Shown: piece after piece, positions 770-41,770 of the stretch
Numbering within the stretch: the stretch's first letter is position 1
Layout of the letters: the number at the start of each line of letters is the position of its first letter
Assembly (NCBI GenBank): GCA_015179045.1
Contig: WHUZ01000093.1
Coordinates: forward strand, 124,001 to 188,000
From: Kalaharituber pfeilii
Lineage: Eukaryota > Ascomycota > Pezizomycetes > Pezizales > Pezizaceae
DNA length: 64,000 nucleotides
Direction: 5' to 3'
The notes under the pieces: generated by a model
The model's input: only the letters and a program-made list of their open reading frames with translations
Databases searched by the model: none
What the model was told of the DNA's origin: nothing
Position numbers and translations under genes: made by a program

Positions 770-779
770 TAGTCTGGTT
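770..779 (+). mobile_element. Micro-insertion TAGTCTGGTT with degraded 9-bp flanking repeat
   Basis: The ten bases TAGTCTGGTT sit between tggacggta (761-769) and tggatagta (780-788), which match at 7 of 9 positions. The insert equals the start of the family seen at 2204, 29953, 30414 and 30491. On its own this locus is weak. Confidence 0.45.
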
Positions 780-1313
780 TGGATAGTATTGTTTAGCAAC
801 ATCCCATTCTGAACCGTGTTGATGGATTCTCCGGAATTTGGGTTGAACTGTGATCCGCAGACCCATAATCCAGTGGTTTTCGCATGCCAAAGGAAGGATT
901 GGGGGTACCTCGAAACTCATTCACCGACCAAATTCTGCATCGTCCATCTTCAGCCTCGCTGACCAATAGCATCATGGACCTCTGCAACCTGGGTACGTAT
1001 CCCACTACCAACCGAACCGTACGAACCAGTCAAGGCTCATTACCGACTGTGATGGATCCTATCAAAACTCAGTAGCTTCTCATCCACACATAGAAGAACG
1101 TTATCACCGGTGGTATCATAGCAGTTGCCCAGGCTGAAGTGTCTGCCCATCTCCAGTGGCATCCTGTAGAGCATCCGTGAAATCCTCATGCCGCAGAGCG
1201 TAGTCGCTATGTCGAGAAAGCAGAGAGACCTCAGTACGGTGTTCATTAGTTGTTCTTTTATCGACTATCTTGGCGGTATTGCATTCTACTTATACCCGCC
1301 CTACCCCACCTCC

Positions 1314-1328
1314 TAGACTCGTAACCAG
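1314..1328 (+). mobile_element. 15-bp micro-insertion TAGACTCGTAACCAG with perfect 9-bp TSD
   Basis: The insert is flanked on both sides by cccacctcc (1305-1313 and 1329-1337). Its sequence is one base away from the first 15 bases of the 123-bp MITE at 22803. Only one terminus is present; the rest of the element is absent. Confidence 0.8.
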
Positions 1329-2203
1329 CCCACCTCCCATTTCAGAACCGCACTTGCACTTGTAACTTCTAGATGTATCACATTTTATGTCAACTATAAT
1401 AGTTGATCAAGAAACATACATTTGCATCCATCACCGAACCTGAACATCCTAGCTCTTCTTCCCTCCCCCGACTTCCCTGCAACATCGGCGGTCGGTCGTG
1501 TTTCCAAACGACAAGAACGGCTGATCGAAAATCAGCAGTACTAGACCCTCACCAATAAGAGCACAACAACCAAATAATATGAGAAAAGCGTATCAATATA
1601 TATACCATCAATTCCCCCATTGCCATTAGCATACCCACGTTTAACGTTCAGCGCGTCCCTCCATATATCTATAGCAAAAACCTGAAATATTTCACTATAA
1701 CAATAACCTATATATATAAATCTCTACCTAATTGCGATAGTAGCCAAGTGAGCGGTGAGATATTGTGCAGGTTGTTCGTATGAATAGCAAGCTAGGTACC
1801 AGAAGGGAGTTCAGTTATAGTCTTGGAGTGATAAATAAGTACACGATGATGTTAAGACCCAGATGAAGAGAAGGGAGAGAGCGAAGGGGAAGGGAGAGAT
1901 CATAGCAAAGGGGAGAGAGAGGGGTAGAGAGGGTATGTCGAGAAATGAATCCGCGAGTTTTTCTCAAGAGATATAGGTGCTAGTAGAATTTGCAGTTGCG
2001 GCAGGGCCCAGCGCTGAGATATGATCCTCGGCCAGCTCATATTACAGTAACGATAGGCTGGGCACCAGACTAAAAGATACTTAGGTATATGTTAAATGAA
2101 CTTGGAGACCTTTTTTTCTTTCCTTTTTATCCCTCCTAATGCTTGCCCCTGTCCATTTATCCCTCACGTGCACACCCACAAAAACACTTAACCTGGAACA
2201 TAC

Positions 2204-2226
2204 TAGTCTGGTTGGCACGACCCCCG
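2204..2226 (+). mobile_element. 23-bp micro-insertion with perfect 9-bp TSD
   Basis: The insert begins TAGTCTGGTT and ends CGACCCCCG. It is flanked by ggaacatac at 2195-2203 and 2227-2235. It closely resembles the 21-bp insert at 30414-30434, which has a different target duplication. Confidence 0.85.
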
Positions 2227-3408
2227 GGAACATACCACTAATTCGAATTCTCGATTCTCGATTCATCATCATTCTCAGATTCCGATTTATCAGCAACATT
2301 ATTCAGAATAACTCTAGATGGTATCCTGGTAGGGCTGGTCGCGCTTTAAGATTCATACACATGGTACTAGTACATACATGTACCCTTTACACATAGCACT
2401 CCAACATCCTCCTCATCCTCCTCTCCCGCTCCCGAATATGCTACTGATAAATCTCATGACGCTTGGTCAATGATATCCGTACATATCAACATACTTGCTA
2501 TATGTGTACTATGCAACAAGTAATTGCAAGGCACAGAAGTACACATAAAATTGCAATGTATGTCTTTCGCTAAAGTTAGGTCGAGTTTTCTTTTCTGACG
2601 ATCCCAACTTTCTTAGGGCTTTTCTCCGCGCAGTGCTCCGGGTCCCGAAACTTGAACCCCCTCCACTCGTACGGCTCAGCAATCTGCATGCTGCACCGGA
2701 AAAACTAAATTCCTCGAGCACGAGTGCAGAAATTTTCATAGAGCTCCATATATAGTAGCCTGGGAAACGGGGCTACACATAGAACGTACGTACTGTGGTA
2801 GTACTAGCGCCTTGGTAATACAAGCGGTGTGCACTGAGACGGTATAGCCTACCCCAAACCCGAATGCCCGATTTCTCACAGACACACCGGTTGGACAACT
2901 CGAGTAAAGTGTCGGTCATTCGCCCCCATACGTACTCGCTCTGGAACAATGGGTTATGTGTTTTCGTTGTGAACAGTTCCAAGAAAATGAGATGCCAGGG
3001 ACATGTAATGCATTATATATCCCCTGACTGCACACGTGATGCTCTTGCTGCAGTATCAGACCCCAGATTTTTCTTCGCAGTGCAGTATCGGAGGCCGACT
3101 GAGTACTTAGATGCTCCGATACGCCGGTTACCACCCAATTCACAGGCAAGGCTGCTTCTAGCCCCCCGGAAGCTAGCCAATAGAGTAGTAATAGCATAAT
3201 GACACACTCGTGATCACATATTGGTCATGAGAAGTTTGACTATTTTAGTTCAGTCCAGCTCCGTTATCAATATCATACGAGTACTATGTATCCCGTGTAC
3301 TTCTAACGCTGGTCGATATCGATAACTGGACCTACTTTAAGGAAGTACGCCAGGCAGCCGAACTGCCGTACCCGACCTTAATCCCCCACCTCTTATGATT
3401 CCCCATGC

Positions 3409-3434
3409 TAAGCAGTAGCCTGGTTCGAGACTGA
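3409..3434 (+). mobile_element. 26-bp micro-insertion with perfect 9-bp TSD
   Basis: The insert runs from TAAGCAG through TAGCCTGGTTCGAGAC to CTGA. It is flanked by tccccatgc at 3400-3408 and 3435-3443. A near-identical core lies at about 23142-23166 (TAAGCGG, then TAGTCTGGTTCGAGAC). A possible partner terminus, CCGAACCAGACTA, lies at about 3489-3501 without an obvious TSD. Confidence 0.75.
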
Positions 3435-4350
3435 TCCCCATGCACAGAATACATGCACCCCGCAAACGTATGCACAATGTGTTTTTGTCCGAACCAGACT
3501 ACTACCTTTATCCAGAAAAAACTACCGCAAGGAAGCCATTTCTTCCCAGGGGCTTTTGCTCAGGAACAAAATTTGACTCATTCTCCGGATCAAGAAGCGG
3601 ATAAAAGTTATTGATTCAACGTTTTAGCAGATGATGCCAGAGATGCATGTAATTCAAGCTGGAGCGTGGGGTAACTTTTCATATCCAGTAGACTCTCAGA
3701 CAACTAGGCCTGTCGCTATTTAGCTGTAATAGAAGTAGCTGTTATGCCCATCCCAGTTATGTGTACATGTGCCTGATTGGAAGTCGTTCCCTTGAGCTTC
3801 ACCATACTCACGGCCAGCTTGACCAAAAGTCCTGGGGTAATAAGGCACTAATATGTCAGTAAGACCGAGAGAGAGAGCTTGCACCCTCGTAAGTCGCTCT
3901 GTAGTTCTCTCGCTGGTTAGAAGGCACTCAAGCGTACTAGTATGGTTCGTAAATATTGTAGGCCCTGTTGTGCAACGACAACATCTCTCGATATTAGAGG
4001 AGTCGGACATGATGAATAGTTCATCCGAGAACACCATGCCGCACTAAATTTGCAAATATTGCTCCCCCTTGACCAAGCAAGCACCGCATTGGAAGTAAAG
4101 GATCCTTGATCCAGGGGCGCATGTATCCTGTTGAGGGGGAGGGGCAAATCTCGAGTGATTCTGCTGAAGCCATCCAGTCAGTCAAAAACTTCTCCACAAC
4201 TCATCAAGGTGTGCAAATCCTAACCTCCTCTGTATTCACCGTTCACAGCCCTTCTTCTGTCCTATCAAATATCCTTCCATTATCCTCTGGCCTGCCAACT
4301 GCGCTGCCGCGCCCCCAGCTTCAAGGTCAGTTTGCCACATGTTAGAGAGC

Positions 4351-4450
4351 TTTTTTCTTCCTTGCTTTTTTCTTTTTTCTTTTTTCTGTTTCTGTTTCTT
4401 TTTCTTTCTTTCTTTCTTTTTCTTTCTTTTCTTTTTTTTTTTTTTTTTCC
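4351..4450 (+). repeat. Polypyrimidine (T/C) tract
   Basis: About 100 bases are almost entirely T and C, passing through TTTTTC and TTTC units into a run of more than 20 T. This is low-complexity sequence. Confidence 0.9.
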
Positions 4451-5697
4451 GACTCCGTACCTAATTTTCCATTTGTTTCTTCTTCACGAAGGGTGAGCAC
4501 ATTCTTTTGGGTGTATGTTCTCCACAGTCTAGGCTCTTAAAGCAACTCTCAGGGTCCCGGGTCCACAAAATACGCTTCACATTCCCACATCCACACCGAT
4601 AGGCTGTCATCTTGTTGCCTCGACGCCCTTGGCGACTTTTCCAGCCGCGGCGTGCGGGGGAAGTCCAGATTGCGCTTTACGGCTCCTAGCGACTAAAAAT
4701 TAATCCCAGCTCGAAAATTCGATTACTGTACCGTACTCTTCAGTTAGCTTAGTTGATCAAAACACAGCGGCCCACCATCTTGGAGAGCTTGCTCAGCCCT
4801 GCTGGATAGTGCTTTACCCGCTCGTCGCACCCCAGGTAGGGCCAAACAGATAGGCAGCGGGAAGTGGGATCCGCAAGGTTGGGGGGTGGGCTGGCGAATC
4901 GAAATCACGATCACGGGTCCCACGCCATTGACCTCCATAGCAACCATCCCCAGCATCGCGCCCATAATCGAAGGACTTCACCACTCCCACCTCCCCACCT
5001 CCACCCGCAGACTTGGGGACTGAGAACTGTGGAATTGCCCCGTTGCTGTGCGCATGCACAAGCTTGCTCAACGTCCACAACAATACCCAACTGTCGTTAA
5101 TCTGCTCATGTATTACAGTAGTTAGCCAAGTGCACCTCAATTGCCATTGCCATCGAGTCTGCGGCTGTCCATCATCCATCCAATCTCACGCATCTCAGGC
5201 CCAGCTTCTCCAGCTGCGTATTCGCCTTGCGTCCTTTCACCTTTGAGTTTCTCTCCCACCGTTTCTCGCAAACACTCTCGCCATTGATAAACAACATTGC
5301 AAAAAATTAAAGGCTCACCAGCCCAGCATCCAGAATTTATATCAACGACCTGCTCTAAATTGAGCGACCGTTTGATGTTCATCTATGACCACCACCAACA
5401 AGCACTAGCCGAATCAACTCTTCTGCACTTACCCGCTAGGTTCTTCTGCTCTGACGAAATCTCAACGCCTCTCCCTCCCCCATACTGTATAGATTTTGTT
5501 GAAACAAAATAATTCGGATTAAAATAATAGAACATTTTGATCAAAGTGGGCTCCCGAACACCGCTGGGTCCCATCTCACCTCCAATCACCACTAGCACCC
5601 CGACCCCCGCAAACGGCCAGCGCATAATTTTATAGAGATAATTATAACTTTAGTCAGAGCTTGAGTTCACCATATCCACCCCATACTCAAAGGCCAG

Positions 5698-8313
5698 ATG
5701 ACGGAGGCGGATTCACAAAGTCCCCGAACGCTCGAAAGTCTGCCGGATGAGCTTCTGTTGCAAATCATCTCCTGTAAAGCCTCCCCTCTCCCATTTTTCG
5801 CTCAGTTCTGCTTCTCCATCTGAGTTCCGTTTCCGCACATCAATTGCTAGCTTCCCCTCTTTCCTCTCTTTGCCCCTTCCTTGCATTTTAGCTCGATCAT
5901 TGCATTTTGCGGGGTCATAGTAGCTTGAGACGTATCATCTCCGTTTCTCAAAATTACTACTCCATGCCCACCACAAAAATAACTCACTCTTTCTTTCCCC
6001 CCTCCTCCTTATTTTTACTTTCATATACAAAATCTTATACTCACCTCCATCCCCAGTTCTTAAACCCAAGGACCTGATACCCCTCCACAAGACATCGGCA
6101 CGCCTCCGCTCCCTGACTCGCGAAGACCCGCATCTCTGGCGCTATGCTACTATCGAGAGTCACAACGAAAAGACTGCGAACAGCCGTGAACGAGCGCCTG
6201 CATTAGTGAATCTGATCGGTCAATTGCCGACGCCCCACGCACAGGATCCTTCTGCACAAGTAACTAGTGCTGCTACGGAGGATGAGAACTATTCCCGCTA
6301 CCTACCTCCAGATATCATTGCAAGTGGAGGAAAGAAGATTGATTGGTATGAGGAATGGAAATGGCGGTTTGGGCCGCTCAGGATAGATTGGCTCGACCAT
6401 CATTACCCGAGGGGCACTTCCACCTGGGGAGCTTCCAGCGGGTCTGACTCAACAGATGAAGAAGACGACACTCCTGGCCTGTCAAACTCCTTCCCGTCGA
6501 CGTGTTCGTCCTCAGTAACATCTCTCACTTCGCTGTATGGTAAATGCAACTTAAAAGGCGGCGACCCGGATGTGGAAGTTCGTGGAATAACGGGCTTCTC
6601 CTCAACGCCATCATCATTTGAGAAGGATATGTTCTTATCGCCACTCTCGGATGGGAGTGTAGTCATCTTTGATTTGAGGAGGTTCGGAAGGCGACGGCTG
6701 GGCGAGGGTTGGGATGGTGAGGATCCTGATGGTGGGGACTGGGGGAGAATCCTGGGACGAAGTAATCCGAGATTGGTGTCTGTTGAAACGAGCACAGGTC
6801 GGGGAAGCTACCTTGTTGGCGGCAATGGAGGGCGTGGCAGTAGTGGCTTCAAGACGACGACGGCGCCAAATGGAGTTGTCGAGTGTGTTTCCGTTGACTC
6901 TTGGTCGGGTAAGGGGTATGTTGCTGTTGAAGGGAGATTGATTGAGATTGTAGGATTCCTCCGCTTATTCTTTTTCCCATTGACATGAAATCATATTAAT
7001 GTTATTAGGACCTTCAAACCCTTCGGAAGACCGCAATTCATCCCTTCGCCTTTAGCATAACCGCTCTCTCACAGACATCCTACCCCTTTCCGCTTACCGT
7101 CTGTACGTCGCACACGATTCACCTCCATGACCCCCGTATATCGTCATCTACTACTTCCGCTGCCCCACAAATGGCGCCATTACATCAAACCGGCGCGCTG
7201 AGTGTCCTGCATAGCAATCACGGGAAGACAACTAGCGGAGAAGAATCGATTTATGTTGCTGGACGATTCAAGGTCATTCTTGTGTATGAACGGAGAATGT
7301 TTCCAAAATTAAATTTGCCACTTCACACTGGTGCCAGATTGTGCACATTATCGTCGTTTCCCTCGCAACCGATAATTCCGTCCGGCTTTTCATTATTAGA
7401 TGAACAGTGTGAGGAAGTCACTAGACAGCCTATTAGGGGAGAGACACTGGTTGCAGGAGGAGAATATAACGGCCGCGGAAGCCTGGAGATATACCCGTCG
7501 AGCGTTCTTCAACGAACAAGTAACCGCACAATGCCCGAATCCAACGGCTCTCTCCCGACCATGACCCGTTCCCATCCATACCTGAAGCGCTACAATCACG
7601 GCGTGGTGAACCCAGACGTTCATCATTTGCAGCATGACATCCAACAATCGATTCTCACCTCCAGCTTGACAACGATGCCCCAGAGCCCTAGTGGGGTTAT
7701 TTATAACAGGCAGAGTGCTTCAAGGAGTAAAATATTGGCAGTAGATGCCAGCCAGGGGACGCGGTTGATTACTGGTGATGCGGATGGTATATTAAGGTGG
7801 GTGGAAAGAGACGGAAGGGCAGAGATAAGGAGGTTTGATATTTTCGAGGAAGGGAATAAAGAGGAGCGGAATTATGAACCTGTCGGAGAAGGAGAAGATA
7901 GGACTGGGTCGCAGTACCAACGCACGCAACACCGAACTGGTCGAACAGGGGGAGGTAGCAGATGGGGAGACGGTAACGCAGGTTACACCAATAGCCATCT
8001 GCGGAGCGAAGTCGTACGCAAGGTCATTGCTTTTGGAGACGGCGAGAGCTCAGGTGGAAGGGCGATTACTGGTGGAGGGGTTGTAGTGTGGACAGGGGAA
8101 CGAGTCGGTGTCGTCAGCGTGGGCCACAGGCGACCTCCACAGAGGGCGGTAAATGGCCGTATTGAGCGGAAGGGGGATATAGGGGTTGTCGATGGAGGTG
8201 AGATCAGTCCGTTGGAGGAGGAAGCTGAGAGGTACGAGATGGAGATCAGAACGGCATTGGAGCGTCAGTCGGATGAACTGAGAATATTGAAGGGGTTGAG
8301 TATGGTGCGATAA
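5698..8313 (+). CDS. F-box protein, three exons, 757 aa
   Basis: Exons are read as 5698-5773, 6057-6949 and 7009-8313, with GT-AG introns of 283 and 59 bp that keep the frame (phase 1, then phase 0). The N-terminus reads LESLPDELLLQIISF followed by LKPKDLIPLHKTSARLRSL and a conserved DPHLWR. That is an F-box (about residues 12-55) and predicts a substrate-recruiting subunit of an SCF ubiquitin ligase that binds Skp1. The middle is acidic and Ser-rich. A stretch near residues 565-582 (ITGDADGILRWVERDG) looks like a single WD40-type blade, so a weak beta-propeller may cover the C-terminal two thirds. The last about 40 residues are charged and helical. The first ATG in frame before the F-box was chosen. 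The substrate is unknown. The splice sites were assigned by eye and the F-box call is strong. Confidence 0.85.
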
Positions 8314-9198
8314 TATTTGTGTGATCGTAAGATCCCGTTCATCCTTGCCTTCCTCCCCTCCTGTGTTCAATGGGGGACTTACTGAGCTGGTCCACTCCAT
8401 TCTCCAACATCTCATTTTCCATGAGTTTTTAGGAACTCTGTACTTTTCATGTGAATATTGACCTGGTTCCTTGCGCTGTCTTTGTATATGTAAAGTTTGC
8501 GTGTATCTCTAAACACGTTATCTCTTATGTTCATTCAATTTTTTCACTTCTATTTTGGTGACATATCCGCTGACCTTATTGTCTTGATGTCGTTTTTAGT
8601 TAGATCTCTGTAAGTATCATGACTTATTTAGGGCTTTTTACGCACCACTGTTCCAAATCGTGTGGTTTCTCAGTGTTTTCTCTGTACATCTTTTTTGGTC
8701 CTTGCGTTGCCCTTCCTTTTGCATCATGCTCAAATAAATTCAAAAGGGAAATCAAGATGAATAGCGTCACAGAGAGGTTTATAGTGTCTGTTCTCTCCTG
8801 ACTCTGTTGGCACTCTGAGGGAAATAACTTTCGGTGGAGGTGCACATTGTATCAGTTTTTACACGGTGACATTGATTTCCGAATTTAGAGGCATCTGTGG
8901 GCTTGGCCTGCTGACTAAGTCTGGTCACGAAATCTCTCGATACGTCACGTCGATGCCAGCCTCGGACGGCAAAGCCCTTTGGAAAAAAGCTATAGCGGTT
9001 AGAGAGAAGGAAAAGGCTACTTCTTGACCGCTACTACCCCCCATATCCGTTTTGTGCTTCACATGGTAAAACTTTTGTTAGGACATCTTTGCACCTCTTG
9101 GCAGAACCCAATTTTCTCTATGGAAGTAGAAGATTTCTTCCAACACAGCTCCATTGTTCGAACTGTGAACTATTTTCGTTTGACAGAATCATCAAATA
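8314..9198. other. Intergenic, F-box gene 3' flank
   Basis: This AT-rich stretch has no coding signal on either strand. Short frames at 8619-8845 overlap each other on both strands and show no motif. Confidence 0.5.
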
Positions 9199-12221: not shown

Positions 12222-12467
12222 CCTCGGGGTCGCGAGACATGCATACGAGAAGACCCACTTGCGAAAACACAGCAACTCAAAGAAAAAAATCGCTTTTTTT
12301 TAGATTCTGAAAAGAGATTTCGGTTTTCTGATGTCCATTCATGTGGTGCACTATTTTTCTTTATTTTCTTTTTGCTATTTTTTTTGTTTTCTGGTGATGA
12401 TTTTGAAGGGGACTCAAAAGTCGTGCAGGGGGGATCCGCTCAGATGCTTGTCCCGCGATCCCAACGG
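12222..12467. mobile_element. MITE copy 1 with about 28-bp terminal inverted repeats
   Basis: The left end (GGGTCGCGAGACATGCATAC) and the reverse complement of the right end (GGGATCGCGGGACAAGCATC) match. The AT-rich interior aligns by eye along its whole length with 41771-42013, for example the shared CTGATGTCCATTC. It has no coding capacity. Superfamily unassigned. Confidence 0.7.
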
Positions 12468-15748: not shown

Positions 15749-15774
15749 ATTTTCTTCAGGTTATGAGCCCGGAG
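15749..15774 (+). repeat. Second copy of the LTR end plus primer-binding site at the inversion joint
   Basis: ATTTTCTTCAGG then TTATGAGCCCGGAG repeats bases 15643-15668. It lies exactly where the inverted gag segment begins: the minus-strand reading frame runs into it and ends KAPGS-stop. This points to template switching or priming at the primer-binding site during reverse transcription. Confidence 0.75.
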
Positions 15775-17314
15775 CTTTGACTGATGTGGTATTGACATGT
15801 CCAAGCCTTTGATGCCATAGGTCAAGGTTGGAGCTTGTAGCTGTAAGTGCACTATTGGCACTTACTTCCGATTTGGAGAGGTAGGTGACATTTAACTGGT
15901 ACATATTTCCTGTGTGTTTAGTTCTGATAAGTATTGACCGTTTGTTAGAATTCAAGATAGTACAAGCTCCTTCTCCAAATAAGACATAGCATCCAGCTAA
16001 ATCTGCCTTCAATACTGAAAAGAGATTACAACCCAGGTCAGGGACGTATAGAACATTAGTAAGGGTAATATCCAAGCCGTTATGCCCCTTTATATAGATA
16101 TCCCCAATAGCTTTAGCTAATACAATATAGTTGTCTCCTAGGCAAACCCGTCGAGGTTTTCGTAACGTTCTAACCGAGTGAAAGATAGAAAGAGAGCAGG
16201 CCATATGATCGCTTGCTCCAGAGTCGATGTACCACAGGTTTCGAGAGCATTGAGATAATGAAGCTCGTGTATGAGATGTCCTGGCTTTGGGTGTTTGTGC
16301 AACCATAACTCGGCTTATTCGGGCTGAAGAATCTTCATCAGTCTTTTCTGTTTTCTGACGCTTTTTATTTTGAAATCTCAATTCCTCCGCTCTTTTCTTA
16401 AGTCTACAATCCTCCTCTTTATGTCCTTCTTTGGTACAATGCCAACATGTAATCGTTTTCGGTATGTATTCATTTCTTTTACCACCACGTCCACGCCCAC
16501 GGTTTGACCTTCTTCCTCTGAATCTGCTGCCTCTTCCACGTCCTCCTTCTTGGTGGCTATCTGAAGTCATGGCGTTGGATGGATTATTTTGTAATAAGCT
16601 CTTCTCATGACTGCAGAGTGAGCTTAGTACGTAGGATCGAGTTTGCATTTCTGCTGGCTGGTTGCAAATGATGTTGACAATTGTCTCATATGATGTAGGT
16701 AAGGAGGTGAGGATGTGAGAGATAAAAGTATTCTCATCAATTTGTTGAGAAGTGTGAGCAAGGCGTTGTTGGTAAGTTAATAGATGAGAAATGTAGGAAT
16801 TGAGGTCTTTTCCCTCATCGAGACGTTGGCTATGGAATTCCCGAAGTAGTTGCGTTGGACCAGCACGGCTTTCTTCAGTATTAAGTTCTGATTTGAGAGT
16901 TGTCCATATTAATACAGGATCATGAAGACCAGTAACATATGCTTGTATTGATTCTGAAATCGATCCATATAGTGTGGCTGTTGCTCTGTTCCTGCGCAAG
17001 TGAAAGTTCTTAAGTTTTTTGTTATACTGAGCTTGTGCTTCAGCATGAGCTTTATCTTGAGCTTGAGTTTCAGGCACCGATGAGCCGCTAGTGCGTGTTT
17101 GCCTGCTGGGGCCAGGTTCTTGTGGTGCAATAATGGGTGCTTCTGGAGCTTTCTCTGTACCCATAACTATATCCCACGCAAGATCAGCATCAATAAGATA
17201 CCTAACTCCTTGACTCCAGGCATGATAGTTATCGCTTGTGAGCTTTGGAACTGATCCATGCTTGTTGGTGTAGATCTCAGCGGTCGGTGCAGGTGTTGCG
17301 ATTGAGGAGGTCAT
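15761..17314 (-). pseudogene. Copia gag-protease ORF (517 aa), inverted inside the element
   Basis: The N-terminal half is a copia-type Gag (UBN2-like; YHAWSQGVRYLIDADLAWDI). It is followed by a basic Gly/Arg-rich stretch and a zinc knuckle, CWHCTKEGHKEEDC (CX2CX4HX4C). Then come the retropepsin site YIDSGASDHM and the GAG-pre-integrase motif LWHQRLGHVN. The frame is open but stops at the inversion joint, just before integrase. The strand is opposite to the LTRs and to the downstream pol fragment, so the element's own promoter cannot express it in sense. Confidence 0.85.
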
Positions 17315-20926: not shown

Positions 20927-20937
20927 AATGGAACCAG
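20927..20937 (-). mobile_element. 11-bp micro-insertion with 9-bp flanking repeat (8/9)
   Basis: AATGGAACCAG lies between cctactcca (20918-20926) and actactcca (20938-20946). Read on the minus strand, CTGGTTCCATT matches the family core CTGGTT. The paralogous segment near 23998-24020 lacks the insert. Confidence 0.55.
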
Positions 20938-21389
20938 ACTACTCCAGAGAGTCTTTCCACTTCCCATTTTGGAATAGCTTCTCTTGGCGCATAATGCAAC
21001 CTATAGACTCTTATGCAACCTCCAATTTCAGTTGCATAATACAGTTCAGATATCCTACCGTATTACTCACTTAAGAGGTAAAACACAAACGCGCGCTATG
21101 GCGGTCTTGGCAAGCCTCTTAGTGTGTACTACGCAATGGCACGTGATGATCCCAGAATTACCGCGATGCTAACCTCAATACCACGGAGACTGATATTATG
21201 AAGGATCTGAGTGCTGAAGTAGGAGACTATTAGATTTAATACTCCTGGATACTTCCACTATCAGTAATTGACAGTTGCCCATTAGGTATCATTGAAGAAT
21301 TGAGTCCCATCTGTTGTATTGTCTGGAAGGTCTTTCATTTCTTAAATATTTGTTAGTATATATACTTGAATATAAAGTGTGAAACATAC

Positions 21390-22802: not shown

Positions 22803-22925
22803 TAGTCTCGTAACCAGACTTAGTCAGCGTCGCATGAAATTGGAGTAGCGACGCTAGGAGCCACTCCATCGCGGAGCACATTCATGCATGAAACTCCGCT
22901 TAGTCAGCGTCTGGTTACGAGACTA
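22803..22925. mobile_element. 123-bp MULE-like MITE with perfect 17-bp TIRs and 9-bp TSD
   Basis: TAGTCTCGTAACCAGAC at the left and its exact reverse complement at the right. The target duplication gtacagctc is at 22794-22802 and 22926-22934. TTAGTCAGCGTC occurs near both ends, and GCGTCGC/GCGACGC can form an internal stem. A 9-bp target duplication is typical of Mutator-like transposons. This is the largest complete member of the micro-insertion family in the window. Confidence 0.9.
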
Positions 22926-29205: not shown

Positions 29206-29218
29206 TAGTCTCATACCA
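29206..29218 (+). mobile_element. 13-bp micro-insertion TAGTCTCATACCA with perfect 9-bp TSD
   Basis: Flanked by aaataaccc at 29197-29205 and 29219-29227. The insert resembles the first bases of TAGTCTCGTAACCAG. It lies about 170 bp after the stop of the 27929 gene. Confidence 0.8.
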
Positions 29219-29722: not shown

Positions 29723-30369
29723 CAGTCTAACCTGGCTATACTGGACCTCCCTACACCGGGAACCTTGCTATACCGGATGGCCTGTGATTTGGACAACCGT
29801 TTCCCATGCAAATTGTCCTTACTATGCCGACACCCTAACAATACTGGACCGGACAGAATGGACCGGACAGAAACCTCCAGACAAGTACCCCCCTGTCTCC
29901 ATACAAATAATATTAATACTAATACATCTTAGACTAACCCCACTTTACCACTTAGTCTGGTTCTTTACCACTCTGTTGCCGTCACTGGCCTGCCGCCACC
30001 GCTGTCGCCATTGCTGCTACCAATACTGCTGTCACCGAACCATGCTTGTAGAGTTTGAAGCTTTTTTGTGTGAATTGAGAGGCTTTTAGAGAAACAGTCA
30101 GAGTTACATGTTTTGGGTCTAGCCAATGCTTCCATATTTGATTGCTCCCCAAGAACTTTTAAGGCTCTACACTTTTCTAGATGGTGAGAGCAATGAATAT
30201 TGAATACACGTGGAATTGAGTTAATGTTTGCTACACTTGTTTATATTCCTACTCTTGTAATTTCTATACAAATTCTTGCCATCCCCCTTTTACAGCTGCC
30301 AAGCATTTTATTCTATACCGGAACCTTGCTATACCGGATGAAAAGTGCCGGATTTTCAAGGTTAGACTG
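29723..30369. mobile_element. Pogo/Fot1-like non-autonomous element (MITE)
   Basis: The left end CAGTCTAACCTGGCTATAC and the right end CAAGGTTAGACTG form inverted termini. Both ends carry internal CTATACCGGA units. A TA follows the right end; the left dinucleotide is TC, so the TA duplication is not intact. Pogo-type elements duplicate TA. No transposase frame remains. The element carries the 11-bp micro-insertion at 29953. Confidence 0.55.
29953..29963 (+). mobile_element. 11-bp micro-insertion TAGTCTGGTTC with perfect 9-bp TSD
   Basis: Flanked by tttaccact at 29944-29952 and 29964-29972. It is nested in the pogo-like MITE, so it inserted after that element. Confidence 0.8.
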
Positions 30370-30413: not shown

Positions 30414-30434
30414 TAGTCTGGTTTGCGCGACCCC
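30414..30434 (+). mobile_element. 21-bp micro-insertion with perfect 9-bp TSD
   Basis: Starts TAGTCTGGTT and ends GCGCGACCCC. Flanked by atccctggt at 30405-30413 and 30435-30443. Nearly the same sequence as the insert at 2204, in a different target. Confidence 0.85.
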
Positions 30435-30490: not shown

Positions 30491-30529
30491 TAGTCTGGTT
30501 GCACTACGAGGGGTAGTGGAACCAGACTA
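30491..30529. mobile_element. 39-bp palindromic mini-MITE with perfect 9-bp TSD
   Basis: TAGTCTGGTT...AACCAGACTA, with inner GCACTAC/GTAGTG, makes an almost complete hairpin around a loop of about 8 bases. Flanked by ccgcttcta at 30482-30490 and 30530-30538. It has both termini, unlike the shorter inserts. Confidence 0.9.
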
Positions 30530-30674: not shown

Positions 30675-30749
30675 TTTTTTTTTTTTTTAAATTATTATAT
30701 ATACCTTATCACGTAACCCTGCTTGCAGCTGTTCGCCATGGGAGGGCAT
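30675..30749 (-). mobile_element. Family A poly-A retroposon
   Basis: A poly-T run and AT-rich stretch, then ATCACGTAACCCTGCTTGC and AGCTGTTCGCCATGGGAGGG, the reverse complement of the family core. No clean duplication found. Confidence 0.65.
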
Positions 30750-32919: not shown

Positions 32920-32983
32920 TTTTTTTGTTTTTTTTTAATTTCACATGACCCCGCTTGCAGCTGTTCGCCATGGCAGGGCGTCT
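32920..32983 (-). mobile_element. Family A poly-A retroposon with perfect 10-bp TSD
   Basis: A T-rich tail, then TTTCACATGACCCCGCTTGC and AGCTGTTCGCCATGGCAGGG. Flanked by tagatgggct at 32910-32919 and 32984-32993. The duplication fixes the insertion at about 64 bp, far shorter than a typical SINE. Confidence 0.85.
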
Positions 32984-33488: not shown

Positions 33489-33543
33489 GATGGTAGCCTA
33501 TGCGGCGTTACGTGACTCAAAAGAAAAAAAAAAGAAAAAAATA
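33489..33543 (+). mobile_element. Family A-like retroposon tail, diverged
   Basis: GCCTATGCGGCGTTACGTGA followed by an A-rich run. No duplication seen. Confidence 0.45.
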
Positions 33544-34055
33544 AATTACTACCAATTAGCGGCTGAAGTACCGCCTTGGCAACATATCTGTATTTATAGA
33601 ACATGTAATATACGTAATGATTGACTGAATTGAGTAATTTCCATTGTGGTACAGCCAGCACAAGGTCATCTTGCAAATAACCTCTGGGCAGTTCACAGAG
33701 TATTGTAGATGCGAGTGGAATTGAGGAGATAGTGACTGCGGAAAGTGGAAGGAGGATGTGGTATGCTATAGCAGGATGTGTGAGTTAGATTTGGCAGGCG
33801 CCCACCTCTACATAGATGATCAGAATGGAATAGGCCAATACCGGGTTGTCGCTCTGGCATGAATGGATCTTTGATTTGTTCTTCTTTGTTCTTTGATTAT
33901 TTGGACTTCTTTCATTAATTCGTTGACATAGAATCTTTCTTTACTTTGTGATTCGAGTTAACACTTTCTTTGCTTCCTTTGTTGACATGTAGATTAAAAG
34001 TATGATAGCATGCTTGTTCTGTAATGAGGAAAGCAAGCAATCCATCCTTTCGGCA

Positions 34056-34094
34056 GGGCGGTACGGGAGTAATGATATAAAAAAAAAAAAAACT
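34056..34094 (+). mobile_element. Family B LINE 3'-tail insertion with 8-bp TSD
   Basis: GGGCGGTACGGGAGTAATGA, TATA and then an A run, the plus-strand form of the LINE 3' end. Flanked by tttcggca at 34048-34055 and 34095-34102. Confidence 0.65.
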
Positions 34095-37000
34095 TTTCGG
34101 CACTCTTGCAATACTACACTTCGCACCCAACATGTGAAGACAAGCCTTGTGTGTCTATCCGCCAGTTCCCAACTTTCCGATCACTCTGAGGCTAGTAGAC
34201 ACTACCGCACTCCTCTCACATTTGTCCCTTCAACCGGAGAACTGTACTGTAGAATACATGCCAGGCTTGATACCACACTACACTCTGGGAAGCAGGGCTA
34301 CGAGTGCGGTAGAGATGACTTTTCTTACTCATACCAAGGCGGGGCAGCGCAAGTGCATTCATTCCCCAATGGAGAAGGTGATACGAGAATTATAATTCCA
34401 ACGGAAGGAACTCCAGTCTCCCAAGATTTTTTTTTTTTTTTTTTTTCCCTTCATGTTCTTGTGGATACAAGCTAACTACTGTATAAAAGCATCAAAGTCA
34501 AAGGGGCGGGCATTGCCCCATATCCTGTCAATCTTGAAAGTATCATAAATCTTGTAGAAACGGTTCCATCGGATGTCTGAAACATCTGCAAGTTTGTCGA
34601 AATTTAGCGGGAGTCGGATATCGTTGGGAACGGTCGGATATCGTTGGGAACGGAGCGGAGCTTGGGAAAAGCCGTTAGATATGAAAAATTAATGCCCACT
34701 TGAAAAAAAAAAAGGATTCCCTGGGTTCGTATGCTTTTAGTGGGGCATCAAGGCGTGCATTCTGACAGGGGACAGGGGCTTGATTCACTAAAATTGTGCC
34801 TAAAGCCGATCACACGCCAAGTCAGGTGAGAATGGAATGCAAAAAAGCAATTGATGAGTGGGGAATAAGTATGATTCCAGCTGCCTTGAGATCGAGAACA
34901 AATGTCATTTAGTTTACCGGTGCTATTGGCAGGCTCTAGTTCATATGATTTCCATATGAATAGTTTCCATACGACAAGCGGTACCAGGAGGGCATGGGTG
35001 GTTTTTCGGGAACAAGAGCCCTGCTTTCACGCAAGCTGGAGTTTCCTTTCCTGGCCTTTACCAAGGTAAACAGGGTCAATCAATTGAAAGCAGTGAGATT
35101 TACTATACTAACCCTAAGACCTTACCAATGTCCCAACCAGCACCCTCAGAACCGATTGGACAGTATGATTGTGAAAGAATCTCCGGATTACTCAGATGCG
35201 ACCTGCCACACTCTAGCATACTTTAGCTGGGACTGAGAGCACTGCTCGGTACCTGGCTTGCAAATTGGGCAAACATTCCTACCTTCCGGAAGCTATACTC
35301 TCCAAACTCACAAGTTACACAAATCATATGAAGGACACTCAGTCGCACGGTGGAAATCTGGAAACAAGCTGAGAATGGATGACTAGTAATTCAACTAGGT
35401 TAACAGTACTTTAATTTGCTTAACTGCCATATTCCCCGTCACAGAAAATTGGATATGAGCACGAGCCTCTGCGGTGTCCATTTCAATATGGCTTGCTCGC
35501 TTGGCGGATTGATTGAAGTTGGTTTTGCATCCCTGCCTTCCTTGCGAGACGAATAGAATGTACTCGAATACATTCCTCGACTGCACTCTCAGGTTCTGCT
35601 GAGACTTGGAATGAGCCAAAGTCATTAGAAAGTGGCTAATGGAACGGAAGATGCCGTTGTTCGGCCATCATATGATATGCATCAGGTCGGGGAACTGGGG
35701 AATGAAACTGACGAAAGCTAAGTTCAGGTAGCTTGCGACAATCAAACCAACCGGAAACTTGTGGGACTTCCCGTTAGCGCTGCTGCTGGAGATTGATTGC
35801 ATGCGGTTGGTTGATCGCCCCCCATCTTCAAATGCTACAGTCAGAATTTAGCTGACAACGAGGGGGTAGAAATCCCTAAGGATGAGTGCGCCAGTGAAAA
35901 TTTCTGTCTCAACACCTGTTTGGTGCAACCGCGCATCATAGGGATCAAGCGAGAACAATCGGTCGGATAATATTCTACGCCTTGCAGGCAGGGGATTTCT
36001 TTTTTTTTTTTTCTTTTTGTTTTTCTGGGGTAGATGGTATCAGAATGTGTGGCGCGGGGAGGGTGATCAAGCTTTAAACATTACTTACATGCCTAGCCTG
36101 CAGTAGGGCAGCGGATCGGAAAACCCGCGGTCGGGAGAGGCAGTGAAGGAGCAAACAACCTTACTTCACAGAGCCAGTTGAGATGCTATTTGATCTCTAC
36201 TAGGCAGCCATGAGGAAAGTCGACGTTGCTGCGCCTGTTTCCAGGGCAAGTGGAGAATGTTCCTGGATGATGTTTCTCCCCTCATTCCATTGGCTAGACG
36301 CTTGCTTTTCCCGTGAGGGGCGGACAGCCACAGACAGGCTAACCCCATCCAGGCGCTGGTTCCTTGTGGCAAGGGCGATAGCGCCTCAATCTCGGCGCCT
36401 GCGCTGTGTCAGCCGGGATTGCTCACTGGCATGTGAGTGCATGAATTTCGACCAATCAGGCTAGGGGGCGTCTCCGAAGCGCCACACTTCGAGCCCGGGG
36501 CTGTTGGTTTGAGGGGTAGGAAATGTCATCGAGCTTCAGACAACTGTGGCCCCTAACAACGGTGGTGAGCCAGCGTGCGGCTGTGCGTGTGGACGGAGGT
36601 GTCACGAATGACTGCTGCAAGTGGCTATCGGAGCCGATAAAGTGGCTCTGTGTGTGAGTGCACCGTCAGGATTCTTTCTAACGCATGCGTGCGTGTGCTT
36701 GTGTGTGTGTGTGTGTGGATTCTGCAGGATACATTCGGAAGCGTGATGGGGATGTGGGGGTCAGAATGCCCTAGGGAAGCTGACGGTGCCCGCCAGCCTG
36801 GCCAACAACGGACCAGTTAACGGAGGATTTTGAGCTGCGGACGCGGCGCCCCTGCTCCCCATCAATGTACTAGTACTTACATTGGCAGAACATTACCCTT
36901 GACTGTCGCAATCTTGTACTTGTACTTCTGGACCGTCCGACAATTTGACCTGTGGCCGCAGGGCAGGGGCAAACCGCAGCGCTTTGCCGTCAACCCAGGT

Positions 37001-38291
37001 TCATTCCCGTTGCCCCCCAACGAATGTCCCGTCTCCCGGCAATATGACCCCGGCACCAGCCAGACGCCAGCAGCCGGGCGTGCAGGGATCGCAAGGCGCA
37101 AGGAGCGAAAGGCCAATATTCGGAATCCATCCGTGCGTGCGCAGGTAGCTGCTAGGGGGAGGTTACCGTGCTGACCAGCTCTGTTGTGAGTAGAGGAACC
37201 TGGACGTACATGCATTTGCAATTTGCCAGATCGATGTTATGGACGAGCGCTTGACACCGTCAAGGTGGAACACAGGCGGTGCGCAAGCACACCAGCTCAC
37301 ACACCGCCCGGCACACCCACTCCACACCAGGTCTCTTTTTCCTCGCCCTTTTCTTTTTGCTCGCAGGGAAAGGAAATTTCTGTTCCAGAAAGAAGGCACG
37401 GGCTGGTGTGGGCTGGGAGGGTGGTGGCTGCTTGGAGTGTGCTAGGGTGCGACACGGTACACATCACATCCATTCCTTCGAGTCATAGCTCAGCGTCGCT
37501 GTGCGTGTGCGGTGTTTAGGCATGAGAAAAGAAAAGAAAAGAAAAGGGTGGTGGCCCTACCATGATCCCGGCTTTGCCACAGCGGAAGGGAAGGGGAAAA
37601 ATAAAAGCGGAATCGAAGGGCAGAAAAAGAGAGCACCGCTTTGATCTAGGCCTTCTTCTCTCGCTCAACTACTTCTTACCACCTTTTGGTTAATTAATTG
37701 GCTTGATAGTCCGTGTGATTAAGCTGCCGTTGCAAGCTGTCAGGAGGTGGTGCAGCTGCTCCCGTCAGTCTCACAAGCTTCCTAAGAACAACACACATCA
37801 GACTTGCGTTATTAGGAGGGCCTCGTCCGCTCGTTACCTCAGATTCGCGAAAGCATAAATTATTGCTGCAACTGCGAACCCGGTGTCCGACCTCTCGCTG
37901 CGCTTGCCTTTCCAGAACACAAACTAGAAACGCGCCGACCACCGCCGACCACGGGCCCACCGCAGCCCCGGCGCTCGCCCTGCGCACAACCACCCACACC
38001 GACCCGCGCCTGGACACTCGGCCACGGTACCCCAGCAACCGTCTCACGCTAACAGGGCAAGCAAGCAGACTAAGTGAAATAAATACTTAATTACGGCCGC
38101 GTCCTCCCCCCCCCCCACTCTCTGTTCCTGATCAGACCGATCTTCGATTCAGACAAACAAAATCGACAATCTGTAGCAGCAAAACAACGACCACAACATC
38201 ATCACTGCTCACGCATACATAATCACGACCGCTGCCACTACGATTCAATCCTCTATATAGCACCGTTGCAACACAGTAATCCTACACAGCT
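34095..38291. other. Intergenic, partly GC-rich, no supported gene
   Basis: Short overlapping frames on both strands, with no domains. Poly-T tracts lie at about 34428-34446 and 36001-36014. A GT microsatellite lies near 36699-36716 and an AAAAG repeat near 37525-37548. The GC-rich stretch from about 36800 to 38290 probably includes the promoter and 5' UTR of the 38292 gene; a run of C lies at about 38107-38117. Confidence 0.45.
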
Positions 38292-39245
38292 ATGTGCGAT
38301 TCTAGTCCATTCTCCTCTTTCTTGTCCGCTCATCCGGCATGGGCCTCACCACGCTCACCCTCATTATGCCCTGACTACTCCTTCCCACCCACATCGAGCT
38401 ACCGCCGAACATCCTCCACTTGCAGCTCCGTATCTCCTAAATCCAGCATCTACCACGGCCGCCGCGGCGCCGTCGTTGCATCCATGGAATCTGACTGCAA
38501 TTCGGACTTACCGACCCCACTAGAACAGATCCGCCGAGGCTCAATATCAACTGCTTTCAACACAATGGGTATCAACAATGCCCCTTTACGAGGCCTACCA
38601 ATGCCAGTGATGAGGCATTCTCAGACATACACCCAAAGCTTGCTGTCGCCACCGTCGTCGCCTAGGGAGCCACCGGCGATGGAGATTGAGGAGACTGAGG
38701 AAGAATTGGAGGTGGCGGAGGAGATGAGGGAGTATGATGACAGGAGATTTCAGAGACAGATCATGTCTAGGCTACAGGCATTGAACCGGACTCACGTCGA
38801 GGAGGCGGAGAGCGAAGGGATACCTTCGGTGACGGTAGAACCCACCTCGAAATTCACACCCCCTCCTTCCCCGCGCCCGTTCTCAAGCCTTGAGCTCCCC
38901 GCGCGACAATCAGACCGCAGCGGAAGCGGCATCGGCGCTAGGTGCAGAGCGCGCAGTTTGAAGCCTTCGCCGTGCTCTTCTGCCGTGCCTTCACCGCTTC
39001 CATCGCCAAGGCTATCAAAGGCAGGACGGCGTGTGTCATTGCCTGCTAACTCCTCAGCGGTTCCATCCGCGAGCACGGGCCACACGTCCGCAAGGGGAGC
39101 AGTCAAGAAGTCAAACTCGTCGATGGGAAGCAGGAGGGGGAGTGCAAAGGGCTGGGAGAGCTTGGTGGTTGCGGGTGGTTTGTTCAAGAGCGGGTGGAGC
39201 TGGGAGAGTGCGTATGGGAAGGGAGTGGGCGATGAGGGGCAGTGA
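38292..39245 (+). CDS. Ser/Pro-rich, probably disordered protein, 317 aa
   Basis: A single open frame from ATG 38292 with strong fungal-style codon use. M65 (38484) is an alternative start. It is almost entirely low-complexity: Ser/Pro-rich blocks (SLLSPPSSPREPP near 115-128, TPPPSPRPFSSLELP near 190-205), an acidic helix (EIEETEEELEVAEEMREYDD near 131-150) and basic Ser motifs of the R-R-x-S type (RRGSIST, RRVSLPA, SRRGSAKG) that look like kinase sites. The C-terminus is aromatic and hydrophobic (WESLVVAGGLFKSGWSWESA). It resembles many fungal proteins of unknown function thought to be regulatory or scaffold proteins. No enzymatic domain, signal peptide or membrane span is visible. Confidence 0.7.
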   Translation: MCDSSPFSSFLSAHPAWASPRSPSLCPDYSFPPTSSYRRTSSTCSSVSPKSSIYHGRRGAVVASMESDCNSDLPTPLEQIRRGSISTAFNTMGINNAPLRGLPMPVMRHSQTYTQSLLSPPSSPREPPAMEIEETEEELEVAEEMREYDDRRFQRQIMSRLQALNRTHVEEAESEGIPSVTVEPTSKFTPPPSPRPFSSLELPARQSDRSGSGIGARCRARSLKPSPCSSAVPSPLPSPRLSKAGRRVSLPANSSAVPSASTGHTSARGAVKKSNSSMGSRRGSAKGWESLVVAGGLFKSGWSWESAYGKGVGDEGQ

Positions 39246-41334
39246 AGAAAGCCTGCGTTTGTCACAGTGAAACTTGATGACCTCATAACCTATTCCAAAT
39301 CCGTTATCAGTCCAAACCTTTTCAACTTTGCATCAACGGAGCATTTGGTCAATGGCATTCATATTCGAGATTTAATTCTGCACAGCGTTCTTTCTCCTTC
39401 ACCGAACCATTAATTCGTTTACTGGGGACATTAAAAAAGTGGGATTGGATTCGGATTGGAGGAGTTTATCCTTCCTTGCCTTCCTTACCTCTCTTATTCT
39501 CATCGTCCTTGACACTAGTATCTTTCTTCACCCAATAGACTGGAATGGCAGCTTTGCTCATCAATTCCGCGATTTTTTTTTTCCTTCACAATATGCTTAC
39601 CTTTTTTACTCTTGAATTCATTTTCCTTTTGAATTTGATTTATGGTGGGAAAACATTCGAACGGCGGAACGAGCTTGGAGGGCTTTGGGGGATTTTCTAA
39701 CAACAGTCTCATCATTTCCGGTCGGCGCATCAAAGTATTCTTTGCTGTTTGAGCTTTTTTGTTTGTGTGACTTATGATTTATTCTCTTTTTGCCGGTTTG
39801 CTTGGGGTCCCTTTTAAGGTGGCATTTTTGGCATTTTCTTTTTCATTTTTTCCGCCTTTTCTTTTCCTGGGTTCATTGGTCGCGCTTTGGGGCTTTTATC
39901 ATCTCTTGTGTATTTTGTGGCTTTGCTTTCTTTTTTATGCTTTATGGAACGAAAGGGAGTATATACAATTTTGATATATATACAATTGCACCTAACTAAC
40001 TGGGAATTGTTTTGGGTTTTTATTCTTTATTTCTTTTTGCAAATTGGCAGTTTGTGGAGGAACTATGGAAGAGGGGGCGGGGGATAAGGAAATTGGTGAG
40101 AAAGTGATGAAAAGAGATGGAATTGAAGTTTGTAGTGTACGGATAGGGGTAGGAAAAAAGGTAGCCTCGTAGGATAAGGAAATAGTTGCTCTATCTACTA
40201 CAGCATAGTTGAACTGTGAGGATGGTGGAAGGGAGGATAAGAATGAATAAAAAGCATATATTTGAAAATAAATAAAATAAAAAACAATGCATGTGTGCTG
40301 AGCCTTTGTTCGTATCGTGGGGCTGGTTACGAGACTACCGTGGGGAAGTTTTTGTGATCCTCTCGTATATCTAGGTACAACCAAATGTGACTGAGAGACA
40401 GGGTACTAGTACAAGGCTATGCCCCCCCACCGCCCCCCACGGCGGAGGCGAACTACCGACTGAGGCGATTAAACTCTTTAAACTTATTGAGCAGGGCTTT
40501 TTTCTTCTTTTCTGTCCATGTATGATACAACTTGTATGTTATAATTGTAGGTAGCAAGGCGCTGGGAGGGGAAACAGTATGCTCTGGGGGAGCAGTGCCC
40601 TTCATTCGCCCCACCCTCCCCTGGCAAGCAAGGCTTTTTGAAAGCCCGTGCAGGGAATCGCAAACTCGGGTTTTGGTTGGGAAAAAGCCGGGGGGGCGGC
40701 GGCGGCGGCGGAGGAGGAGTCGAGCTGAGAGAGGGGGAAGGGGGGGCAATTGCAAGGATTGAGGGGGGGGCTTGGCTTGGAAATCCTTTTTTTTTTTTTT
40801 TTTTTTTTTTGGTTTCTCGAGGTGGGAGTGTATTTTGAATTATAAAGATTATTATAATTGATTTTGTATGTCTTTTCGGAGATGTCGGTTTCTGGGATAT
40901 AGTTTATGTAAGGTGCGTGTAGATATATGATTTGTTCCATTTTGAATTTTTTTTTTTTTTTTTTAGGGGGTTATGTAAACGAAGTAAGGAAATATGCCTT
41001 TTTTTTTTTTTTTTTTTTCTTTTTTTTCATATTGTTGTAAATGATAAAACTTTTCTGCCTGTGCTACTTCAAAAACGGGGGGGCGCGGGAAAGGGAAAAA
41101 AAAGAAAAAAAGAAAGGAAACAAAGCAAAACAAAAACAAAAGTAACTACAACTGCAACGCAAAACAAAAACAAAAAAAAATTTTTTGTTGAGAGAGACAT
41201 TCGGAGAATAGGACGCAATCTGATTACAGCGTTCCATCACAGTGACGAGGTGGTGGCACGAAGGAAAAGTTCTTGGCATTGTGAGACTATGTGAAGCTAT
41301 GAGTTTTATACTACAGCCAATCGTGCTCCCGAAT
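39246..41334. other. Intergenic with dense homopolymer tracts
   Basis: T, A and G runs dominate from about 39560 to 41180 (for example poly-T at 40788-40811 and 40999-41018). The open frames there are artefacts of these runs. No gene recognised. Confidence 0.6.
40323..40336 (-). mobile_element. 14-bp micro-insertion with 9-bp flanking repeat (8/9)
   Basis: CTGGTTACGAGACT is the reverse complement of AGTCTCGTAACCAG, the terminus of the 22803 MITE. Flanked by atcgtgggg (40314-40322) and accgtgggg (40337-40345). It is the opposite orientation to the copy at 1314. Confidence 0.65.
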
Positions 41335-41391
41335 TAGTCTCCGATCAATTCCGGAAGCTCCGCTTTTAGTCAGTGTCTGTTTACGGGACGA
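41335..41391. mobile_element. 57-bp diverged MITE of the TAGTCT family
   Basis: Starts TAGTCTCCGATC and ends with GTCTGTTTACGGGACGA, a mutated form of the right TIR (GTCTGGTTACGAGACTA). Internal CTCCGCTTTTAGTCAGTG matches the 22803 element. Flanks ctcccgaat (41326-41334) and ataccgaat (41392-41400) agree at 7 of 9. An older, internally deleted copy. Confidence 0.7.
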
Positions 41392-41770
41392 ATACCGAAT
41401 GTAGCTGGCAAACATACTTTGTTCAATACCAAGCATCGGTACTGTAGTTAGAGATAGAGAGTGGGGTGGATTAGAAAGATCTAGGTACTGTGGGGTTGAT
41501 GATCATAGAGAATCAGTCTAAGTCTATGAACATGTCCTTTTCCCCTTATACAGCCTCTGCCTTCCCTTCACTTCCTCCTACAGTCACCACACCTGACTCT
41601 GCTATTCACTCTGCGAAGCCTCTCATCTAACCATCCGCTCATGGGTTATTCATTCCCAGCTCCCCTTTGCTACTTACAGTACATGGGATTTCCTCAACTT
41701 CATGTTCGGCCATTAGCTCTAACCAGCCACGCCTGTCACATGCCAAACGCTGAGGCATAATATCCGTTAT

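What the first reader, a model, noticed from the sequence alone, without database searches (positions are those of the whole stretch)
770..41400. A family of tiny insertions (10-123 bp), each flanked by a 9-bp direct repeat
Twelve loci (770, 1314, 2204, 3409, 20927, 22803, 29206, 29953, 30414, 30491, 40323, 41335) carry inserts that begin or end with TAGTCTGGTT or TAGTCTCGTAACCAG. Eight have perfect 9-bp flanking repeats (cccacctcc, ggaacatac, tccccatgc, gtacagctc, aaataaccc, tttaccact, atccctggt, ccgcttcta); the other four match at 7/9 or 8/9. A given 9-mer match is a 1-in-262,144 event per tested pair, so chance does not explain eight. A 9-bp duplication is the Mutator-like hallmark, yet most inserts are 11-26 bp with only one terminus, too small for two binding sites. 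Either a transposase integrates aborted end fragments, or full elements are lost leaving one terminus and both duplications. I know of no description of this system.
Basis: partly seen in the sequence, partly recalled or inferred. Interest (0 to 1): 0.87.

Follow-up and report, generated by a model that had tools for sequence, protein, structure and literature searches.

The report
Excision scars of helicase-bearing transposons
The tiny insertions look like scars left behind when a little-known kind of fungal jumping gene cuts itself out, and their near-fixed length hints at how its cutting enzyme works.

Summary
The eight perfect 9-bp repeats are real. The genome is that of the desert truffle Kalaharituber pfeilii. 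The terminus TAGTCTCGTAACCAG occurs 777 times, reversed control 0. Of the first 100 listed copies, 38 have an exact and 17 a one-mismatch 9-bp flanking repeat around an insert of at most 45 bp; shuffled flanks give 0.56 and 0.48. Lengths cluster: 15 bp (25 copies), 25 (12), 19 (7), 14 (4). The same terminus bounds 9.6- and 10.1-kb elements with exact 9-bp duplications; the 9.6-kb one encodes a DUF6589 protein and a RecQ-like helicase. Helicase plus 9-bp duplication fits AcademH, not Mutator (0 of 71 MULE hits lie inside a listed terminus). The window's 123-bp element is an internally deleted copy of the 10.1-kb type. Best reading: excision scars keeping both duplications and about 15 nt of one end, consistent with a P-element-like staggered cut. 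Shown: duplications, length classes, parent elements, one empty-site comparison. Inferred: staggered cut, strand-wise joining, helicase role. The transposase fold was not confirmed; 45 of 100 copies are not such scars.

The parts
1314..1328 (+). 15-bp single-terminus scar TAGACTCGTAACCAG between two CCCACCTCC
   Evidence: same length as the main class
2204..2226 (+). 23-bp single-terminus insert (TAGTCTGGTTGGCACGACCCCCG) between two GGAACATAC
3409..3434 (-). 26-bp insert ending in a related terminus (reverse strand TCAGTCTCGAACCAGG...) between two TCCCCATGC
20927..20941 (-). probable scar of the GGTT-type terminus; best fit is 8-bp CTACTCCA around 12 bp
   Evidence: weak
22803..22925 (.). 123-bp two-ended non-autonomous element (MITE) flanked by GTACAGCTC twice; its first 44 and last 55 bp are identical to the right and left ends of the 10.1-kb C314 element, so it is an internally deleted copy of that type
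29206..29218 (+). 13-bp scar TAGTCTCATACCA between two AAATAACCC; this 13-mer occurs 260 times genome-wide (control 2)
29953..29962 (+). 10-bp scar TAGTCTGGTT between two 10-bp repeats CTTTACCACT
30414..30434 (+). 21-bp single-terminus insert between two ATCCCTGGT
30491..30529 (.). 39-bp two-ended palindromic mini-element between two CCGCTTCTA
40323..40337 (-). 15-bp scar, reverse strand TAGTCTCGTAACCAG, duplication imperfect
770..779 (+). candidate only: TAGTCTGGTT with 7/9 flanks
   Evidence: of chance quality
41335..41391 (+). candidate only: possibly a decayed element with 7/8 flanks
   Evidence: of chance quality
41810..41899 (+). empty-site paralogue (one copy of the target, no insert) of the 11-bp scar at L008:1501
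   Evidence: 80% identity, 0 gaps across the junction

Best explanation
The tiny inserts are excision scars of AcademH-type DNA transposons. An element (long copies of 9.6-10.7 kb, or short non-autonomous copies) inserts and duplicates 9 bp of target. On leaving, its transposase cuts the strand that will be transferred at the duplication boundary and the other strand about 15 nt inside the element. Each flank is left with a roughly 15-nt 3' tail that is the element's outer end. Joining the tail of one flank to the intact duplication of the other leaves duplication + 15 bp of one terminus + duplication. The 25- and 19-bp scars fit pairing of GACTA or AGAC(T) inside one end with the outermost bases of the other end before joining. 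Shown: duplications, fixed lengths, parent elements with the same ends, one empty-site comparison. Inferred: the staggered cut, the strand-wise joining, and any role of the element's RecQ-like helicase in opening or processing the ends.
For: Genome-wide: 777 copies of the 15-mer, control 0. Of the first 100 listed, 55 have a 9-bp duplication (at most 1 mismatch) around an insert of at most 45 bp, control about 1; 25 of the 55 are exactly 15 bp; 53 distinct duplications. A second family (TAGTCTCGTGCCCA, 165 copies, control 0) gives 5 scars of 14, 14, 14, 15 and 16 bp (3 exact, 2 with one mismatch) among the first 22 listed, control 0.15; one of the 5 (L018) was known before. Its terminus lies about 1.65 kb upstream of another DUF6589 match at C35. 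Parent elements: C296:305408-315023 with GCGGAATAA twice, DUF6589 E 8e-70 and DEAD/Helicase_C domains, best NCBIfam match the RecQ family; C314:259697-269824 with CTCGCTACG twice; C335:172919-183625 with GAGGTCGGG twice, interior not read. At C296 and C314 the DUF6589 match starts 1462 and 1461 bp from the terminus. Empty sites for an 11-bp scar. Nine of 17 single mismatches fall at positions 1-2 of the duplication, next to the joint. AcademH makes 9- or 10-bp duplications (PMC10045372, passage). P elements cut with a 17-nt stagger giving 3' extensions (PMC7776569 and PMC10983969, passages).
Against: 45 of 100 copies have no duplication within one mismatch in the tested range; 8 of these hits are in five two-ended elements with a duplication of at most 2 mismatches, the rest are longer than the stretch read, decayed or unexplained. 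A 15-nt tail alone does not explain the 25-, 30- and 31-bp classes. Inserts that begin TAGTCTGGTT have 10, 11, 21 and 23 bp in the window and L008, so a fixed length is shown only for the first two families. In the second family 17 of 22 are not scars by this test. No site was seen in both filled and scarred state, and no second strain was available. Empty sites were found for one scar only, with two further copies aligning with gaps; a second attempt found three copies of that locus, two read and both scarred, the third not read. The fold of the DUF6589 protein was not resolved (mean pLDDT 39.3), so a DDE transposase core is not shown. The Academ assignment rests on duplication length and helicase, since the defining paper was not held.
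Confidence: 0.72

Rival explanations
1. The transposase inserts short end fragments produced by aborted cutting, so the 15-bp pieces are insertions in their own right.
For: Both duplications are intact around a piece with one terminus; short pieces outnumber short two-ended copies in the sample (55 against 8 of 100 hits).
Against: A duplication needs two joined ends a fixed distance apart, and a 15-bp piece has one terminus; nothing in this model fixes 15 bp with the inner end at CCAG.
Confidence: 0.12
2. Short non-autonomous elements lost their middle by interrupted gap repair or by slippage between short direct repeats.
For: All 12 inserts of 25 bp end in GACTA and 6 of 7 of 19 bp end in AGACTA, repeats of the opposite terminus; short two-ended forms of 36-42 bp exist; the window's 123-bp element is an internally deleted copy.
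Against: The largest class (15 bp) and the 30-bp class have no such repeat at the joint, and random internal deletion would give a spread of lengths and keep both ends.
Confidence: 0.25
3. Mutator-like element (MULE) footprints.
For: 9-bp duplication; 71 MULE domain hits in the genome.
Against: 0 of 71 MULE hits lie inside any of 100 listed termini, 3 of 34 DUF6589 hits do. The MULE Muta1 in yeast excises precisely in about 90% of events when a duplication is present (PMC5225508, passages).
Confidence: 0.03
4. Chance repeats around a common motif.
For: 770 and 41335 are of this quality, and matches with two mismatches are mostly background.
Against: 38 exact and 17 near-exact duplications against 0.56 and 0.48 in shuffled controls.
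Confidence: 0.01

Closest known systems
AcademH DNA transposons (Kojima 2020; paper not held, known here through passages of PMC10045372 and PMC10799480)
   Same: 9-bp duplication, inverted termini, element-encoded helicase (RecQ-like here)
   Different: No account of AcademH excision scars showed up in the searches made (listings, and passages of two papers). The putative transposase is matched only to DUF6589.
Drosophila P element
   Same: Works alike in the proposed cut: a long stagger inside the terminus leaving 3' tails (17 nt there, about 15 nt here)
   Different: Duplication of 8 bp; THAP and GTP features were not looked for here
Mutator-like elements (Muta1, Os3378)
   Same: 8-10 bp duplication
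   Different: Different genes; Muta1 mostly leaves precise excisions, with a terminus remnant of up to 13 bp only occasionally, in donors without duplication (PMC5225508, passages)
MITEs
   Same: Two-ended non-autonomous copies such as window 22803-22925
   Different: The 10-15 bp inserts have one terminus and are not MITEs in the usual sense

Membership tests
AcademH | 9- or 10-bp target duplication | tested here: met
   Exact 9-bp duplications at the C296, C314, C317 and C335 elements and around 38 of 100 short inserts
AcademH | helicase gene inside the element | tested here: met
   DEAD and Helicase_C domains and RecQ-family match in the C296 element, the only one read whole for genes
AcademH | inverted termini | tested here: met
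   First 44 bp identical and inverted at C296, first 17 at C314
AcademH | Academ-type DDE transposase | tested here: inconclusive
   Protein is DUF6589; fold prediction failed; no Academ reference sequence was available
Mutator-like element | MULE transposase between the termini | tested here: not met
   0 of 71 hits within 9 kb inward of 100 of the 144 termini
Mutator-like element | 8-11 bp duplication | tested here: met
   9 bp, but not exclusive to this family
P element | P-type transposase gene | not tested
   No search for THAP or P transposase domains was made in the genome
P element | long staggered cut inside the terminus | not testable with these tools
   Inferred only from scar length
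MITE | short copy with two inverted ends and duplication | tested here: met
   Window 22803-22925 and five two-ended loci; the 10-15 bp inserts lack a second end

The most novel reading that the evidence does not exclude
AcademH transposases cut with a long stagger about 15 nt inside the terminus, like P elements. The two non-complementary 3' tails are ligated strand by strand opposite each other, and replication turns this mismatched patch into single-terminus scars. The element's own RecQ-like helicase takes the part that the host Bloom helicase takes in P-element repair.
Probability: 0.35. Interest if true: 0.78.

Novelty: new variant of a known kind. Interest (0 to 1): 0.64.

Why it matters
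No description of how AcademH elements excise was found in the papers searched here. Many scars of fixed length give a natural record of the cut position and repair route: 55 of 100 copies of one terminus that occurs 777 times. They also show that 10-25 bp indels flanked by direct repeats can be transposon footprints that ordinary annotation would miss, and they suggest a testable reason for a transposon to carry a RecQ-like helicase.

Tried and rejected
MULE origin: rejected on gene content. Simple chance: rejected. A blunt or filled-in cut at both ends predicts a 30-bp palindrome: the pattern with 0-12 bases between the two 15-mers occurs at 4 places genome-wide, with 11, 9, 9 and 6 bases between and none with 0; such palindromes may also be unstable, so this is weak. 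A 10-bp instead of a 9-bp duplication for the 15-bp class: the base 10 upstream is G in only 9 of 25, so 9 bp holds there, while the GGTT type shows 10 bp in two cases. Empty-site search for the L035 locus found three copies, two of them read and both scarred. Structure prediction of the DUF6589 protein gave no usable model, so no fold search was run. Three protein searches found three proteins of the same fungus and one unnamed protein; in each only about 8,000 candidates were scored. A profile search of the PDB with the DUF6589 alignment gave one match at E 0.1, not taken as meaningful. The AcademH paper is not held, and no held paper links DUF6589 with transposons.

Limits of the samples: the 100 copies examined are the first listed in contig order (C1 to C24), not a random draw, of 777. 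The shuffled control does not exclude a 9-mer drawn back to its own locus. Two-ended copies longer than the stretch read (141 to 301 bp for most) could not be recognised. The 22 of the second family are the first listed of 165. The terminus list set against MULE and DUF6589 hits is 100 of 144, and those hits are pieces of genes (4 of the 34 DUF6589 hits are below the cut-off).

Full report
OBSERVATION. The eight loci with perfect 9-bp flanking repeats are present as stated. Two of the four weaker loci (20927, 40323) are plausible; 770 and 41335 are of chance quality. A random window position has an exact 9-bp copy 8-150 bp downstream with frequency 0.0064, and the window has 39 TAGTCT motifs, so about 0.25 cases are expected; 6 were found. 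Ranking all hexamers at the edges of such inserts puts TAGTCT first in the window, tied in one of four settings. Over the 288 kb held the exact matches were 14 against 0-5 at shifted places, but with two mismatches 195 against 93-142, so loose matches prove nothing. In a 200-kb sample of contig C1 only one exact case was found.

GENOME-WIDE TEST. The window lies in a genome of 78.0 Mb in 360 contigs. The 15-mer TAGTCTCGTAACCAG occurs 382 + 395 = 777 times, against 0 for the reversed control. I read the surroundings of the 100 listed copies. The best 9-bp match for inserts of 8-45 bp is exact in 38 and has one mismatch in 17 of 100; shuffled upstream 9-mers give 0.56 and 0.48. The 55 cases have 53 distinct duplications. 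Their lengths are 15 (25 cases, 19 exact), 25 (12), 19 (7, of which 6 end in ACTA), 14 (4), 30 (2), 31 (2, sharing one duplication and similar flanks), and 17, 20 and 23 (1 each). The other 45 include 8 hits in five two-ended short elements with duplication; the rest are longer than the stretch read, decayed or not explained. The duplications have a weak symmetric preference, G at position 1 (27 of 55) and C at position 9 (25 of 55).

PARENT ELEMENTS. Pairs of the longer terminus (144 places at up to two mismatches, 100 listed) led to three long stretches that I read and one of which I read the ends. C296:305408-315023 is 9616 bp with GCGGAATAA on both sides. It encodes a DUF6589 protein (PF20231, E 8e-70) and, on the other strand, DEAD and Helicase_C domains whose best NCBIfam match is the RecQ family; the best PDB matches of the DEAD part are RecQ helicases. 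The DUF6589 protein is BDZ91DRAFT_828583 of Kalaharituber pfeilii, on a contig of the same length (555,395), which names the organism. C314:259697-269824 has CTCGCTACG on both sides, and its DUF6589 match begins 1461 bp from the terminus, as at C296 (1462 bp); its interior was not read. Its left end has the form TAGTCTCGTAACCAGACGCTGACTA and its right end, read inwards, TAGTCTCGTAACCAGACTTAGTCAGCG, so the two forms seen among short inserts are the two ends of one element. The window's 123-bp element at 22803 is identical to that element over 44 bp at one end and 55 bp at the other, so it is an internally deleted copy of it. C335:172919-183625 (10.7 kb) has GAGGTCGGG on both sides (interior not read). 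C317:369236-372479 (3.2 kb) has the same ends and TGTAAAACC on both sides; no domain search was made there. The C112 stretch holds two elements in a row with three copies of one duplication. Another DUF6589 gene, at C35, has the related end TAGTCTCGTGCCCAGACGCTGACT about 1.65 kb upstream; its other end was not sought.

NOT A MULE. Of 71 MULE domain hits none lies within 9 kb inward of any of the 100 listed termini; of 34 DUF6589 hits three do, one of them a below-cut-off piece, and 31 do not (other families would have other ends). A helicase-bearing element with a 9-bp duplication matches AcademH, stated to make 9- or 10-bp duplications (PMC10045372, passage). The defining paper was not held, and the attempt to model the DUF6589 protein failed (mean pLDDT 39.3), so the transposase part of the assignment is open.

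MECHANISM. The 15-bp scar keeps the duplication on both sides and ends at a fixed inner base. That is expected if one flank keeps a 15-nt 3' tail from a staggered cut and the other flank begins at its duplication. P elements make such a cut with 17 nt (PMC7776569 and PMC10983969, passages). Ligating each tail directly to the opposite flank would give a mismatched patch that replication resolves into single-terminus scars; this is inference. In the 14-bp class (4 cases) the first base of the right-hand duplication is lost or coincides with the last base of the scar. The 25-bp class (12 of 12) ends in GACTA and the 19-bp class (6 of 7) in AGACTA, repeats of the opposite outer end, which fits pairing before joining. 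The 30- and 31-bp classes fit neither and are unexplained. A second family gives 14-16 bp (5 scars among 22). Inserts beginning TAGTCTGGTT have 10-11 bp at 29953 and L008 but 21 and 23 bp at 30414 and 2204; the CATACCA type has 13 bp at 29206, and that 13-mer occurs 260 times with control 2. So a near-constant length is shown for two families and is open for the others. P-element break repair involves the fly Bloom helicase homologue (passage; its kinship to RecQ is recalled); that AcademH brings its own is a hypothesis.

EMPTY SITES. The 11-bp scar at L008:1501 (CCAAAAGTA twice) lies in a dispersed repeat. Copies at window 41810-41899 (80%, 0 gaps), L013 and L019 run through the junction with one target copy and no insert; copies at window 12222 and in L009 align with gaps and are less clear. 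A second attempt gave no empty copy. No second strain was available.

PRIOR ART. Muta1 in yeast excises precisely in about 90% of cases when duplications are present, with terminus remnants of up to 13 bp seen occasionally without them (PMC5225508, passages). Searches on AcademH or Academ, some together with excision footprints or scars, showed no description of such scars (listings, and passages of PMC10045372, PMC10799480 and PMC12730594).

Noticed in passing
L061 (C2:713430-713680), L089 (C112:2209600-2215800), C68:728557 and 728585: Triple duplications: two inserts in a row sharing three copies of one 9-mer (a 15-bp scar twice at L061; a long element then a 69-bp MITE at L089). At C68 two 19-mers lie 28 bp apart, which suggests the same but was not read. 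Re-use of one target or tandem duplication is undecided.
   Followed up: partly
L033 (C1:393040-393260): A 15-bp scar nested in a 13-bp TAGTCTCATACCA scar, showing successive events at one place.
   Followed up: no
L156 (C18:153261-153311): A short two-ended form of the second family (TAGTCTCGTGCCCAG followed closely by an opposite end) with 7 bp of duplication before the stretch ends.
   Followed up: no
L089:1900-2900: Frames that look like a broken Tc1/mariner transposase inside one long copy (by eye, no search made).
   Followed up: no
L090 and L091: Arrays of tandem repeats (about 30-34 bp units in L090; repetitive frames in L091) inside the long elements.
   Followed up: no
window 15761-17314 (-): ORF that looks like a Ty1/copia-type retrotransposon protein with a zinc knuckle (by eye, no search made).
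   Followed up: no
window 12222-12361 and 41810-41899: Copies of a dispersed repeat also present in L008, L009, L013 and L019.
   Followed up: no
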